The notes beneath the pieces are model-generated. The model was given only the letters and a program-made list of their open reading frames with translations. It searched no databases and was not told the DNA's origin. A program made the translations under genes and the position numbers. 18,949 nt of DNA from Pseudomonadota bacterium (GTDB lineage: Bacteria; Bdellovibrionota_C; UBA2361; OMIW01). Below are positions 1 through 5,327 of the stretch, in pieces (positions within the stretch are counted from its first letter, which is position 1; the number at the start of each line of letters is the position of its first letter). The stretch is from assembly GCA_900299205.1 (NCBI GenBank), contig OMIW01000190.1, forward strand, positions 1 through 18,949, in the 5' to 3' direction.

Positions 1-462
1 GTCGAGCGATTAGTTCTCCCCGGTGGTGAGAGCACAACCATGCTCCATCTGCTTCGCATTAGTGGTATGTTCGACCCCCTCGCTACCTTCTGCCAACACC
101 GCCCGGTTCTTGGGGTGTGCGCCGGGGCTATCCTACTCGCGTCAGAAGTTGTGGGGCCATCGCAGCCCTCGCTCGGAGCTATACCCCTCCGGGCTCACCG
201 CAATTTTTACGGTTCTCAACGAGAATCTTTTGAGGCTTCGATTACGGTTTCGCACGACCAGGCGCCACATCATGTTTCGTTTATCCGAGCACCTTTGCTC
301 GAAGCGATCAATGGTGAAGTAACGCCTGTTTCCTTTTTCGACAAGCAGCCGGTGCTGTTCCGATATCGTAATGTGCTTGCTGCCTCTTTCCATTCGGAGT
401 TAGGGAACGATCTCTTTCTGCATGAGATGTTCTTGGCTATTCCTGTGGGGCATGGAGTTTGA
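1..462 (+). CDS. pdxT: PdxT, glutaminase subunit of pyridoxal 5'-phosphate synthase (5' end outside window)
   Basis: This is the C-terminal part (153 residues) of the class I glutamine amidotransferase that hydrolyses glutamine and passes ammonia to PdxS for PLP synthesis in the cytoplasm. The frame is open from base 1. Visible family signatures are LPGGEST at the left edge, the nucleophile elbow GVCAGA with the catalytic Cys at bases 118-120, the RNFYGSQRESFE block (family form RNxFGRQxxSFE), FIRAP, and the C-terminal His/Glu pair in SFHSEL. All catalytic positions of the Cys-His-Glu triad present in the fragment are intact. The full protein is normally about 190 residues, so roughly 40 are missing. 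pdxS usually lies beside it and may be just upstream of the window. The next gene starts 2 bp after the stop, which suggests co-transcription. The family assignment is secure. Confidence 0.92.
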   Translation, partial: VERLVLPGGESTTMLHLLRISGMFDPLATFCQHRPVLGVCAGAILLASEVVGPSQPSLGAIPLRAHRNFYGSQRESFEASITVSHDQAPHHVSFIRAPLLEAINGEVTPVSFFDKQPVLFRYRNVLAASFHSELGNDLFLHEMFLAIPVGHGV

Positions 463-464
463 TT

Positions 465-1373
465 GTGTCAGGAGAGCTTTCATCGTTGGTAATTGACACA
501 TCGCCCATTCCTGGGACCTATGCCCTCGTTGATTCGGGAGAGGGGGTACGAGTCGAGCAGTGGGGAGAATATCTCCTGGAGCGTCCCTCGAGTCTCGCCT
601 GCTGGCAACGGCGCGGTGTGGCGGACTATGTTCCTGATGGTGTCTATCTACCAGCAAGCGGATGGCGAACCTCCAGGAAGTTACCCGCTCAGTGGCCCGT
701 CATCATAGATGGGGTCACGATGTTCGCCCGATGCCAGTCAAACGGTCAGGTTGGGGTATTCCCTGAGCACGCAACGTATCTCCCTGAAATTCGCGCGGTC
801 GCATCTCGCCCCGGAGCGCGAATTCTCAATATCTTTGCCTACACAGGGCTTGCATCTATCGCGGCTGCGGCGGCAGGCGCAGAGGTCACCCATGTAGACC
901 TCTCAAAAAGTGCGATAGGGTGGGCTCGGGAAAATGCGGGTGAAAATAACATTTCCTCGATCCGGTTTATTACCGAGGATGCCCTTTCGTTCCTGAATCG
1001 AGAGATAAAACGGGGGAGCCGTTACGACCTCATCATCGCCGATCCTCCCTCATTCAGCCGACCCACCCCAAAGTCTCGCTGGGAGCTTGGGGAGATTATC
1101 GTCCCGTTGCTCGAAGCGATTATATGTCTCCTTCGGTGGACAGGGGATCGGTCAGAGAGGGGCCAAGAGGGAAAGGGAGAGTTGATTGTAACGACCCATA
1201 GTTATGAGGTTGGAAATTTAGTCATTGAGAATCTCATTCGTGACTGTGTGTCGGCAGAAGGAGGGGCGATGGGGGTGCGTTTTCGTGAATCGCGACAGCT
1301 CGTTATCAGGGAGAACGCGGGGCGCGGATTGGCAGCAGGTTTTTTGGTTTGGGGAGAGGTGACGAGGGCATGA
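465..1373 (+). CDS. Class I SAM-dependent methyltransferase, RlmI/RlmK-like (probable 23S rRNA methyltransferase)
   Basis: A 302-residue Rossmann-fold methyltransferase. The SAM-binding motif I is LNIFAYTGLAS (about residues 121-131), followed by the acidic THVDLSKSAIGWARENA segment that contacts the cofactor, RFITEDALSFL, and the catalytic-region motif ADPPSFSR near residue 192. This order, with a WGEYLLER block and a beta-rich N-terminal region, matches the C-terminal catalytic domain of the RlmI/RlmK group of 23S rRNA methyltransferases. Whether the product is m5C, m7G or m2G cannot be read from the sequence, and no PUA domain is evident. I chose GTG at 465 because GGAG lies 7 nt before it at 454-457. 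A TTG at 459 overlaps the pdxT stop but sits too close to that site. It is probably translationally coupled to pdxT. The family is confident; the substrate is inferred. Confidence 0.8.
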   Translation: MSGELSSLVIDTSPIPGTYALVDSGEGVRVEQWGEYLLERPSSLACWQRRGVADYVPDGVYLPASGWRTSRKLPAQWPVIIDGVTMFARCQSNGQVGVFPEHATYLPEIRAVASRPGARILNIFAYTGLASIAAAAAGAEVTHVDLSKSAIGWARENAGENNISSIRFITEDALSFLNREIKRGSRYDLIIADPPSFSRPTPKSRWELGEIIVPLLEAIICLLRWTGDRSERGQEGKGELIVTTHSYEVGNLVIENLIRDCVSAEGGAMGVRFRESRQLVIRENAGRGLAAGFLVWGEVTRA

Positions 1374-1430: not shown

Positions 1431-1498
1431 CATAACTCAGGACAGCCGTTTAGATATTTGGCTACCGGCAGCGATGTGAGATTTACGAGGAGGGGAGT
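1431..1498 (+). promoter_or_regulatory. Leader of first paralogue, related to the leader at 2742-2808
   Basis: CATAAC at 1431 lies 68 nt before the GTG start. GATTTA followed by GAGGAGGGG (a strong Shine-Dalgarno at 1488-1496) lies just before the start. The second paralogue has CATAAC 67 nt before its GTG and GATTTA followed by AGGAGGGG. Shared ends at matched spacing suggest a duplicated leader, possibly with a promoter. No convincing sigma70 -35 is visible (TAGATA at 1451 could be a -10). The regulatory role is inferred. Confidence 0.4.
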
Positions 1499-2677
1499 GT
1501 GGCGATTGTGACCCAAGGCGAACGAGAGGGAGCTGGATCGCCAGCTTCAGCCACACCGGCGACAACGTCGGCACCAGCTACGTCTTCGGTGGCGGGAGCG
1601 GCTAGCTTCCGACCGATCTCTTCGGTCCGAGAGTTGGCTCAGAGCGATCCCTATAAACAGGGTGAGAAAGATGCGATGAAAGCGCTTCTCGCATCGATAA
1701 AGCCGGGTGAATCGGTTACCCGGGATGGGGTCACGTTCACGGTGCACGATAAGGGAGCCGAAGAGGGTTTTCGTCGCGTCGAGATAGCCGACCGCAGCGG
1801 TAAAAAATTTGAACTCATCGTCCATGCGGCATCTGGTGACATCGTCAAACAGAAAAGTTCGATTGGCGGGGTGCCCTGGGACAAGGTTCGGATTGAGCAG
1901 GGCGTCGCGGCCGTTCATGAGGCGTTGCGTCCGGTGTGCAAAGCAATAGTGCAAAAATCGGCAGATGCGACCGAACGGGGAGCCGAGGCCAGCTCGGGCT
2001 CATCACGGGATAAGGGAACGTCTACACCCGTCACTGGGAGGGAGTTGGCGACTCTGGCGAGAGAACATGCAGGCAAAGGACCACAGGAGGTCGGTTCAGG
2101 AACTATCGCAAGTGTGGTTCAGCCCGATGGCCGCCACCAAGTATCCGTCCGAGCGCGCTCCGGGAAAAATGAGGAGGTGAGCTTCGTCGTTGATGGTAAT
2201 GGAGAGATTGCTCATCCGGTGTATCGTGAACGTGGGCACGGGCCTCAGCCCCTGAATCTGAGCAGAAGGGAGGATTTCGATAGCTTTCAGAGGGTGTTGA
2301 GCTCAGTAGGGGCTGGGACAAAATCGGAAGCAACCCCTGCTTTGACTGATAAAGCCTGGCTGACATCGCTCGGCAAATCTGATTTCCTTAAAGGCACTCC
2401 TCAGCTCATTCAAACGACGACAGGGGGAGTGATAGAGAGCTCGACAACAAATCCATTCCCTGACGAACCGCCTTTCTCGCGAGTTGGTGCCACCTCCTAT
2501 CTTATTCTGCGACCGAAGGGGCCAAATTCTGCTGCGTCCCTCGTCTTGGCGGTGAACGCGGCGGGCGAGCCCATCGCTGGGGTTCTCGAGGGTAAACCGC
2601 TGAAGCTCGATGATCCATCAGATATCGCTGCAATAACGAAGGCTTATCGTGATGTGTACGGAAAGGGCCCGAAGTAA
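1499..2677 (+). CDS. Uncharacterised protein, first of a tandem paralogue pair, three-module alpha/beta architecture
   Basis: A 392-residue protein of no family I recognise. Residues 1-45 are Ala/Ser/Thr/Pro-rich and probably disordered, with no signal peptide or membrane segment. Residues about 49-153 form a domain (YKQGEK, KPGESVTRDG, HDKGA, SGDIVKQK, AAVHEALRPVC) that is roughly 70% identical by eye to the next gene. By eye the protein then repeats a helix, two or three beta strands ending in a D/A-x-x-G-E/D turn, and a closing helix. The repeats are at about 55-145, 181-270 (VDGNGEI turn) and 283-388 (NAAGEPI turn). Its only cysteine, Cys147, is conserved in the neighbour. The GTG start is fixed by GAGGAGGGG immediately upstream. 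A strand-turn-strand resemblance to PepSY-like domains is possible, but no family assignment is justified. Location is probably cytoplasmic unless exported by a non-Sec route. Confidence 0.8.
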   Translation: MAIVTQGEREGAGSPASATPATTSAPATSSVAGAASFRPISSVRELAQSDPYKQGEKDAMKALLASIKPGESVTRDGVTFTVHDKGAEEGFRRVEIADRSGKKFELIVHAASGDIVKQKSSIGGVPWDKVRIEQGVAAVHEALRPVCKAIVQKSADATERGAEASSGSSRDKGTSTPVTGRELATLAREHAGKGPQEVGSGTIASVVQPDGRHQVSVRARSGKNEEVSFVVDGNGEIAHPVYRERGHGPQPLNLSRREDFDSFQRVLSSVGAGTKSEATPALTDKAWLTSLGKSDFLKGTPQLIQTTTGGVIESSTTNPFPDEPPFSRVGATSYLILRPKGPNSAASLVLAVNAAGEPIAGVLEGKPLKLDDPSDIAAITKAYRDVYGKGPK

Positions 2678-2741
2678 CGAACTCTTCAAAGGCTTTTAAT
2701 TTGAGGCAACTCCGTTGGGGCACATCGAATTGAAAGAAGGT

Positions 2742-2808
2742 CATAACCCTTTAAGACGCACACCTCGTTTTGAGGCTGGGAAAACAGTAGGATTTAAGGA
2801 GGGGTACC
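2742..2808 (+). promoter_or_regulatory. Leader of second paralogue, related to the leader at 1431-1498
   Basis: CATAAC at 2742-2747 lies 67 nt before the GTG start. GATTTA and AGGAGGGG (2798-2804) directly precede the start, as in the first paralogue. The middle portions are only loosely similar. It may represent an independent promoter for the second gene or a relic of tandem duplication that included the upstream DNA. Confidence 0.4.
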
Positions 2809-4002
2809 GTGACAGCAGCAGCGACTCAACCAGGGCCTTCATCAGCCAGTCCCACGTCCCCGGGAGCATCACCAATTCCGGCAGTGGCTCCGGCGACGGC
2901 ACCATCTGCGTCCACCAGCTTCCCCCGTCTAGATTCTTCGACGGCGATCGTCAAGAGCGAGCCGTACAAACAGCAAGAGAAGGTCGCCATGAGGGAACTA
3001 CTCTCATCGGTAAAGCCGGGTGAGTCGGTGACCCGCGATGGGATAACGTTCGCGGTGCACGATAAGGGAGCAGATGGAAAGCCGCTGCCTGAGGGATATC
3101 GACGAGTCGAGATTTCTGACCCGAAAGGGAAAAAGGTAGACCTGTTGGTCCATGTGGCGTCGGGCGACATAGTAAAAGAAAAAAGTTTGGTAAATGGAGT
3201 TCCCTTCGACAAAGTGAGGACGGAGCGGGGGTTAGCCGCGGTTCACGAGGCATTGCGGCCTGCCTGTAGCGCATTGGTACAGAAGCCATCATCGGCAGGA
3301 ACGACTCCTCAGCCAGGCGGGGCTACGAGCCCTGAGCCGGGAGCTACGCCCGAGTCGCGACTCTTCTCGCCCCGTCAGGAGGCAGCCATCAGGGAGGCAT
3401 CCCAAAAGCCCGGGTTTGCCGATTACCTCAGACAAAAGTACCCGGGTGAAGTGACTGAGACAGCGGATCGGATCTCGGTGTCAGTGACCGTGGGGGCGAA
3501 GAAGGTCAACCTTGAGTACATGAAGACGGGGGGAGATCCGAGGCTTCCCGGTGCCGACCCCAGCTTGCCCGAGTTGGGGGCTTTAAGGAGGCGGATCCTC
3601 GGTGACGTGGGGGGGTTCCTCGATCGGCCGTTGAGTGAGACACCCGCGTCGGCTACCGCACCCGCGTCGGTCCCGGCGTCGGCTCAGACAACAGCGGCTC
3701 AGATTACGACTGATGGCACGATTCGCCCCGAGGAGCAGGCAGCCATAGCTCAGGCGTGGAGAACGCGGAAGGCGGAGATATTGGCAAGGCTTGAGGAGGC
3801 TAAAGGAAAGGGGGATATCACACAAGCGAGTGTCTCGGGGGATGTGATAACGGTGGGTGGTCGAGTGGGGATCGTTCCGTATCAATTGGTCATCAATGGC
3901 GCGAACGGGCAGGTGCAGCTCCTCGTAAACGGCCAACCATCGACAAATCCTAATCACTTGCGCATAGTGGAGGGGAAGCTCAAATCACTCTTCCAAATTT
4001 GA
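2809..4002 (+). CDS. Uncharacterised protein, second of the tandem paralogue pair
   Basis: A 397-residue protein whose N-terminal domain (about residues 50-160) matches the preceding gene, with a 5-residue insertion after HDKGAD. Residues 1-40 are Pro/Ala/Ser/Thr-rich, and two more linkers of the same composition (about 160-185 and 275-300) separate it into three modules. The second and third modules start with similar helices, RQEAAIREA (189-197) and EEQAAIAQA (308-316). Each is followed by paired strands (RISVSVTVGAKKVNLEY; YQLVINGANGQVQLLVNG) and a basic closing helix. The single cysteine, Cys153, aligns with Cys147 of the neighbour. There is no signal peptide, membrane segment or recognisable catalytic motif. 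The GTG start has AGGAGGGG just upstream. Function is unknown; the linker-module layout suggests a scaffold or binding protein, which is inference only. Confidence 0.8.
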   Translation: MTAAATQPGPSSASPTSPGASPIPAVAPATAPSASTSFPRLDSSTAIVKSEPYKQQEKVAMRELLSSVKPGESVTRDGITFAVHDKGADGKPLPEGYRRVEISDPKGKKVDLLVHVASGDIVKEKSLVNGVPFDKVRTERGLAAVHEALRPACSALVQKPSSAGTTPQPGGATSPEPGATPESRLFSPRQEAAIREASQKPGFADYLRQKYPGEVTETADRISVSVTVGAKKVNLEYMKTGGDPRLPGADPSLPELGALRRRILGDVGGFLDRPLSETPASATAPASVPASAQTTAAQITTDGTIRPEEQAAIAQAWRTRKAEILARLEEAKGKGDITQASVSGDVITVGGRVGIVPYQLVINGANGQVQLLVNGQPSTNPNHLRIVEGKLKSLFQI

Positions 4003-4264: not shown

Positions 4265-5212
4265 TCAGCAGTTGAAGAAATATAGGTGGAATAATCGGGA
4301 GTCGTCCTTATTGCTCCCATAGTAGCCACTCGCCGCGTGAAGTGACCGTGCGTTGAAGATGACGCAGCGATTGTAGACGTTCGCTACGGAATCGACGAGC
4401 TCCATGTTGTTCCGATCGTAGAAATTGTTCCCATTGAAGCTCAAGCGGTCTAATTCCTCCTTCGTTTTGCCAAGTCGACTCGCGTCCTCATCGGTAGCTG
4501 CACCGTAAAGCCCCGTAATTTTGCTGCGAAATGTCTGAGTCCCTGTCTGAAGGGGAGCGTGTGGCGAAAGGTATACCATCGCCGCATATTCTTGGGTGTC
4601 GTAGTGGTAGACGACGGAGTCCTGAGCGACGCAGTACTGGAATACCCCCGTTGCTCCAACAAAATCAGTTACCTGCTTGTTAAGAAGGCGGCTAAATTCA
4701 TCCTTAACCCAGCTTGGTATGTATCTCTCCTGGGTGCGGTTTCCCTTGTGGTACATCTCGTTTGCTGTAAATTCACGGGAAAGGGCGTACTCTCTGATGA
4801 AATCCGGGTTTTCATAGAAATTATCGACGACAATCAGCTCTATCTTTGCAAGCTGATTTGGCTTGATTATTTCGTCGATGGCAAGCCCTGCAAATTTGTT
4901 ACCCGGAATGGTGAAGAGAGGCTCCCCTCGAATCGATATCAGGCAGTCACTCGCTTGGGCGGTGAAGGTTATCTCGATCCCGCTATTGAGGTAGCTTAGA
5001 TGGCTCTGCTGATAGAAGTTATAGACGTCTGGTCTTTGGGAGATGGTGGCGCGACAGGGTATGGCGCAATGCACCGAGGATACAGAGACCGAGATGTCCT
5101 CTGCGGTATATGGGGTGCTACCCGCGGCCCAGCAGTTAACGGTTACTTCCCGGTCGTTCCGATTGACGGAGTCGATATATCCCTTGTAAACGGGAGAAGA
5201 AGTTTCGTGCAT
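4265..5212 (-). CDS. 2-oxoglutarate/Fe(II) oxygenase-like protein (DUF6445-like C-terminal domain) with N-terminal beta-rich module
   Basis: A 315-residue protein from the ATG at 5212, chosen because GAGGA lies a few bases upstream and the conserved part starts soon after. A longer frame can be read from 5320. The C-terminal half starts with IVVDNFYENPDFIREYALS, typical of a 2OG-Fe(II) oxygenase-like family (DUF6445). It carries a candidate facial triad, His203-Tyr-Asp205 (YHYD) and His292 (SLHAASGYYG), and Arg306 (SRLFHLYFFN) for 2-oxoglutarate. These support an active non-haem iron dioxygenase. Residues about 9-90 (GYIDSVNR, CWA, DISVSV, QRPDV, GIEITFTA) resemble a beta-sandwich module found in glycan-related proteins; that likeness is from memory of the pattern. 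The substrate is unknown. It lies 115 bp downstream of the Cys4 gene on the same strand and may be co-transcribed. Confidence 0.75.
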   Translation of the reverse strand: MHETSSPVYKGYIDSVNRNDREVTVNCWAAGSTPYTAEDISVSVSSVHCAIPCRATISQRPDVYNFYQQSHLSYLNSGIEITFTAQASDCLISIRGEPLFTIPGNKFAGLAIDEIIKPNQLAKIELIVVDNFYENPDFIREYALSREFTANEMYHKGNRTQERYIPSWVKDEFSRLLNKQVTDFVGATGVFQYCVAQDSVVYHYDTQEYAAMVYLSPHAPLQTGTQTFRSKITGLYGAATDEDASRLGKTKEELDRLSFNGNNFYDRNNMELVDSVANVYNRCVIFNARSLHAASGYYGSNKDDSRLFHLYFFNC

Positions 5213-5327
5213 ACGTCCTCGCGAATAGTTTCGTCGTTCATTCGTCGTTGGAGATATGGGAGCGCTGACTCTGTCGCACCCCATAGACGCGAGGGTAGTC
5301 AAGAACGGGGTCGGGGGCAAGATTTCC

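What the first reader, a model, noticed from the sequence alone, without database searches (positions are those of the whole stretch)
1499..4002. Tandem paralogues built from three degenerate copies of one alpha/beta module
Each of the two unknown proteins can be read as helix, two or three strands with a glycine turn, then a closing helix, three times over. In the second protein the modules are separated by Pro/Ala/Ser/Thr linkers, and two modules begin with similar helices (RQEAAIREA and EEQAAIAQA). I recognise no known family. Seen: pattern, composition, duplication. Inferred: repeat ancestry and a binding or scaffold role.
Basis: partly seen in the sequence, partly recalled or inferred. 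Interest (0 to 1): 0.6.

Follow-up and report, generated by a model that had tools for sequence, protein, structure and literature searches.

The report
Orphan gene pair sharing one N-domain
Two neighbouring bacterial genes encode unknown proteins that share one duplicated front domain but have different back halves, all predicted as small helix-sheet-helix modules; they may be cargo of the bacterium's syringe-like secretion system, but that part is only an inference.

Summary
Both genes are real: each has a strong ribosome-binding site, and the shared domain shows dN/dS 0.135 at dS about 1.7. The two proteins are paralogous only over residues about 36-160 (65% identical). Beyond that they cannot be aligned with each other, and the modules inside one protein are only marginally similar (P2 p about 0.03; P1 p 0.07-0.34 against unrelated natural segments). 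AlphaFold2 models, of moderate confidence and made from two sequences, do show helix, 3-5 strands, helix three times in each protein. No relative was found in the libraries and collections searched, nor in the 45 held genomes of the phylum: an orphan family. Both proteins lack a Sec signal and begin with a Pro/Ala/Ser/Thr-rich tail. The genome carries a non-flagellar type III secretion system, and another protein with the same kind of tail and no Sec signal, built from peptidoglycan enzymes. My favoured reading, at confidence 0.3, is type III (or other Sec-independent) export cargo: the shared front half for delivery, the differing modules as the working part. An intracellular binding or scaffold role remains open.

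The parts
1487..1496 (+). ribosome-binding site GAGGAGGGGA of gene 1
   Evidence: sequence
1499..2677 (+). gene 1 (392 aa, GTG start), orphan protein with three helix-strands-helix modules
1499..1603 (+). Pro/Ala/Ser/Thr-rich N-terminal tail of protein 1 (residues 1-35), no Sec signal; 65% P/A/S/T in residues 2-41
1643..1972 (+). module 1 of protein 1 (residues 49-158), duplicated in gene 2
2027..2317 (+). module 2 of protein 1 (residues 177-273)
2333..2674 (+). module 3 of protein 1 (residues 279-392)
2681..2716 (+). 36-nt sequence shared with the end of an insertion element elsewhere in the genome (probably a solitary terminal repeat)
2796..2804 (+). ribosome-binding site AAGGAGGGG of gene 2
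   Evidence: sequence
2809..4002 (+). gene 2 (397 aa, GTG start), orphan protein with three helix-strands-helix modules joined by P/A/S/T linkers
2809..2916 (+). Pro/Ala/Ser/Thr-rich N-terminal tail of protein 2 (residues 1-36), no Sec signal; 80% P/A/S/T in residues 2-41
2956..3297 (+). module 1 of protein 2 (residues 50-163), paralogous to module 1 of protein 1
3355..3636 (+). module 2 of protein 2 (residues 183-276); contains RQEAAIREA
3709..3999 (+). module 3 of protein 2 (residues 301-397); contains EEQAAIAQA

Best explanation
An old tandem duplication (shown) gave two genes that keep one N-terminal half in common, a disordered P/A/S/T-rich tail plus alpha/beta module 1, while their C-terminal halves carry other small alpha/beta modules that have diverged past recognition or were exchanged (shown: not alignable; which of the two is unknown). 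Inferred mechanism: both proteins are cargo of a Sec-independent exporter, most likely the non-flagellar type III secretion system encoded in this genome. The disordered tail would be the export signal, module 1 a common handling or chaperone-binding domain, and the variable modules 2 and 3 the part that binds targets outside the cell. The presence of type III genes and the absence of a Sec signal are shown; export and target binding are inference.
For: Module 1 is under purifying selection (dN 0.23, dS 1.72, ratio 0.135) while the C-terminal halves do not align: a conserved front and variable back. No upstream in-frame extension could hide a Sec signal (open frames 407 and 403 aa against 392 and 397), and there is no hydrophobic stretch near the N-terminus. 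The two tails are among the three most P/A/S/T-rich N-termini of 48 own ORFs (0.65 and 0.80); none of 309 ORFs in 20 regions around SctJ-like genes of relatives reaches 0.60. Published type III signals are enriched in Ser, Thr and Pro and depleted in Leu and acidic residues (PMC2669295). The genome has SctJ and SctV genes (best NCBIfam hits TIGR02544 and hrcV) apart from a separate flagellar FlhA; SctJ/FliF-type genes occur in all 45 genomes of the phylum. The third protein with such a tail (622 aa, G000:C75) carries peptidoglycan-enzyme domains normally used outside the cytoplasm, yet has no Sec signal. Absence from every relative fits fast-changing cargo genes.
Against: All export evidence is indirect. 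The tails are also rich in alanine, which PMC2669295 places in the depleted group, and the tail of protein 1 holds acidic and basic residues. No chaperone-like gene or secretion gene is adjacent in the window. SctJ and SctV of this genome score below their curated cut-offs, and the cluster is only partly seen. No family member lies in the 20 regions around SctJ-like genes of relatives. Module 1 could equally be a cytoplasmic binding domain.
Confidence: 0.3

Rival explanations
1. Intracellular modular adaptor or scaffold: three small alpha/beta domains on flexible linkers each bind a partner, and the duplicated module 1 gives both proteins one common partner.
For: Disordered linkers between compact modules. 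Fold look-alikes of single modules include ligand- or peptide-binding domains such as polo-box, KA1 and BamC (Z 4-7). No Sec signal.
Against: Fold matches are no stronger than the tool's background for middling Z. No partner, no conserved neighbour and no relatives from which a conserved surface could be read.
Confidence: 0.25
2. PepSY/BLIP-like inhibitor modules that hold a cell-wall enzyme or peptidase in check, perhaps the 622-aa peptidoglycan enzyme of the same genome.
For: Helix followed by an antiparallel sheet ending in 'V..xxGEI'-like turns; best PDB Foldseek hit of protein 2 is the YpeB C-terminal domain (5boi, E 0.03; a PepSY protein, from general knowledge), with a BLIP-like protein lower down. 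BLIP and PepSY proteins are tandem repeats of such a motif (PMC2954215).
Against: No Pfam PepSY, PepSY_like or BLIP match even at E 10. Known members of the superfamily are described as periplasmic with signal peptides; these have none. The modules have a closing helix and middling Z.
Confidence: 0.12
3. Young or fast-drifting lineage-specific genes with no single conserved job: a partial tandem duplication next to an insertion-element remnant.
For: No relatives found; an insertion-element end lies between the genes; the C-terminal halves are unalignable.
Against: dN/dS 0.135 at high dS in module 1, strong ribosome-binding sites and intact frames argue for long-kept function.
Confidence: 0.15

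Closest known systems
Type III secretion substrates (effectors) of Gram-negative bacteria
   Same: No Sec signal; disordered, Ser/Thr/Pro-rich, Leu-poor N-terminus; type III genes in the genome; lineage-restricted genes with conserved front and variable back
   Different: Alanine-rich tails, no adjacent chaperone gene seen, no known effector domain, secretion not tested
PepSY / BLIP / DUF2874 superfamily (PF03413, PF07467, PF11396)
   Same: Small helix-plus-antiparallel-sheet modules in tandem within one chain
   Different: No Pfam match, no signal peptide, an extra closing helix, long disordered linkers
Helix-flanked antiparallel-sheet domains such as KA1, frataxin and BamC
   Same: Module 3 of protein 2 aligns with them at Z 5-7 over roughly 65-85 residues
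   Different: Sequence identity under 20%; Z at background level; no functional residue shown to be shared

Membership tests
Type III secretion substrate | A non-flagellar type III apparatus in the same genome | tested here: met
   SctJ and SctV on G000:C55, best hits TIGR02544 and hrcV though below curated cut-offs; a separate full-length FlhA on C127
Type III secretion substrate | No Sec/lipoprotein signal peptide | tested here: met
   maximum 15-residue hydropathy 0.71-0.72 in the N-terminal region, no upstream extension
Type III secretion substrate | N-terminal signal composition (Ser/Thr/Pro up; Leu, acidic, Ala down) | tested here: inconclusive
   S/T/P 40-55% and 0-1 Leu in residues 2-41, but about 25% Ala
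Type III secretion substrate | Export through the apparatus | not testable with these tools
   needs a secretion assay
PepSY / BLIP-like superfamily | Profile match to PF03413, PF11396 or PF07467 | tested here: not met
   no Pfam family up to E 10 for either protein
PepSY / BLIP-like superfamily | Signal peptide / periplasmic location | tested here: not met
   no hydrophobic N-terminal stretch
PepSY / BLIP-like superfamily | Helix-loop-helix plus four antiparallel strands | tested here: inconclusive
   helix, 3-5 strands, helix in moderate-confidence models; 5boi is best Foldseek hit at E 0.03
Internal three-fold repeat protein | Significant sequence similarity among the three modules of one chain | tested here: inconclusive
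   protein 2 p 0.025-0.028; protein 1 p 0.065-0.335 against unrelated natural triples
Internal three-fold repeat protein | Same fold in the three modules by superposition | tested here: inconclusive
   same order of helices and strands in all six, but model coordinates could not be superposed here

The most novel reading that the evidence does not exclude
A new family of type III (or other Sec-independent) export substrates built from serial alpha/beta modules behind a shared delivery half, in a little-studied phylum in which SctJ/FliF-type genes are universal, and exported alongside a peptidoglycan-acting enzyme with the same kind of tail.
Probability: 0.2. Interest if true: 0.6.

Novelty: new member of a known kind. 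Interest (0 to 1): 0.35.

Why it matters
If the shared half is a delivery module, it gives a handle for finding the cargo of type III systems in an uncultured phylum whose held genomes all carry SctJ/FliF-type genes. If not, it is one more orphan pair showing that a common alpha/beta module can be reused until its sequence is unrecognisable.

Tried and rejected
Family libraries: Pfam, NCBIfam, PHROGs, PADLOC and PDB sequences gave nothing above chance for either protein. tblastn of protein 2 against phages and plasmids gave no match. IMG/VR and GTDB contig scans found no relative; these need exact short peptides, so distant relatives are not excluded. Searches of relatives (57 genomes) and of the whole held phylum (45 genomes) with the proteins or the module-1 profile found only the own genome; the few other rows were chance-level. 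Foldseek against the PDB gave no hit below E 0.02, mixed folds (RseB, LolA, YpeB) and whole-chain TM about 0.1; VIA-align Z was at most 6.9. Foldseek against BFVD gave one hit at 7e-4 with TM 0.11, not credible. Type VI secretion was considered for the 622-aa protein because of the weak Tlde1 hit, but VipB was found in none of 42 genomes searched, the own one included. The N-terminal part of the 622-aa protein was suspected to be another copy of the module; alignment scores are at chance, so this is not claimed. Truncation of gene 1 by the insertion-element end was considered; the model shows a complete last module, so it is not claimed.

Full report
What is there. The window is the whole of contig C190 (18949 bases) of a 2.45-Mb, 206-contig genome. 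RpsA on the same contig is 67-74% identical to those of its nearest named matches, uncultured 'Deltaproteobacteria'/Oligoflexia MAGs. Gene 1 (1499-2677, 392 aa) and gene 2 (2809-4002, 397 aa) follow a PdxT-type gene and an RlmI-like methyltransferase gene and precede a DUF6445 gene on the other strand. Each starts with GTG a few bases after a strong ribosome-binding site.

Paralogy. The proteins align over about 150 residues (59% identity, E 3e-53) and nowhere else. Over the 121 aligned codons dS is 1.72 and dN 0.23, ratio 0.135, with changes concentrated at third positions (23, 23 and 68). This is an old duplication kept by selection. Modules 2 and 3 of one protein do not align with modules 2 and 3 of the other. 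So the pair shares a front half and differs behind it.

Internal repeats. AF2 models made from the two sequences (mean pLDDT about 60, pTM 0.31) show helix, 3-5 strands, helix three times in each protein, with disordered linkers. By sequence, summed module-to-module scores exceed shuffles (z about 3), but natural unrelated segments also do so at times. Against triples of segments from unrelated neighbouring proteins, protein 2 stands at p 0.025-0.028 and protein 1 at p 0.065-0.335 (an earlier control was spoiled by orthologues in the pool). Common ancestry of the modules is possible, not shown. VIA-align placed module 3 of protein 2 with KA1, frataxin and BamC domains, module 2 with BamC, module 1 with polo-box and module 2 of protein 1 with polo-box, all at Z 4-7, the level of common arrangements.

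Relatives. None found in profile libraries, PDB sequences, phages, plasmids, IMG/VR, GTDB contigs or the 45 held genomes of the phylum. The family is at present confined to this genome; no other member of its genus or family was among the genomes searched, so its true spread is unknown.

Context and mechanism. Neither protein has a hydrophobic N-terminal stretch, and there is no room upstream for one. Residues 2-41 are 65% and 80% Pro/Ala/Ser/Thr. With a 622-aa protein of contig C75 (75%) they are the three highest of 48 own ORFs examined; the next is 50%, and none of 309 ORFs from 20 regions around SctJ-like genes of relatives reaches 60%. The 622-aa protein came to light through a DNA repeat, not through its composition. 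It has a Beta-lactamase2/S11-type domain, whose best solved relative is TLL2115, and a YkuD domain, enzymes that normally work outside the cytoplasm; yet it has no Sec signal. Motifs read by eye (STIK, SDN, and H...TEGC) suggest both active sites are intact. The genome encodes SctJ and SctV of a non-flagellar type III system on C55, next to a small protein with no family match, and separately FlhA and FlhB of a flagellum on C127 (FlhB by reading the sequence). SctJ/FliF-type genes occur in all 45 genomes of the phylum, many with two short SctJ-like copies and one FliF-sized copy. Delta-proteobacterial 'Myxo' type III systems are known as an early branch (PMC3459982). Type III signals are enriched in Ser, Thr and Pro and poor in Leu (PMC2669295). 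I therefore favour Sec-independent, probably type III, export, with confidence 0.3; the alanine richness of the tails is against it.

Insertion-element remnant. A 36-nt stretch between the genes (2681-2716) matches the end of an element whose 398-aa transposase lies on C142; an identical 85-nt end closes contig C75, about 240 nt upstream of the 622-aa gene. Only three copies of its core were found in the genome.

Verdict. The secondary-structure observation is right; 'tandem paralogues' holds for the first half only; triplication is unproven; function is inferred. The family is an orphan and modestly interesting because it may mark type III cargo in a phylum where SctJ/FliF-type genes are universal.

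Noticed in passing
L030 854-2722 (G000:C75, minus strand): 622-aa protein with a 75% P/A/S/T N-terminal tail and no Sec signal, a DD-peptidase/class A beta-lactamase-like domain and a C-terminal YkuD (weakly Tlde1-like) domain; candidate exported peptidoglycan enzyme.
   Followed up: partly
L124 246-4051 (G000:C55): Non-flagellar type III genes: SctJ lipoprotein, a small protein without family match and SctV; separate from flagellar FlhB/FlhA on G000:C127.
   Followed up: partly
45 genomes of the phylum: Every held genome has SctJ/FliF-type genes; many have two short SctJ-like copies plus one FliF-sized copy, so paired non-flagellar type III systems seem typical of this phylum.
   Followed up: no
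window 2681-2716: 36-nt end of an insertion element sits alone between the two genes; other copies flank a transposase on C142 and lie upstream of the 622-aa gene on C75.
   Followed up: partly
L125 12722-14140 (G000:C127, minus strand): 472-aa Ser/Gln/Pro-rich low-complexity protein near flagellar export genes, possibly a hook-length or export substrate protein.
   Followed up: no
window 459-1373 and G000:C40 28153-28917: Two RlmI/SAM-methyltransferase-like paralogues in one genome, 43% identical.
   Followed up: no
window 4265-5320 (minus strand): DUF6445 protein, matched over its C-terminal half; the N-terminal half has no match.
   Followed up: no
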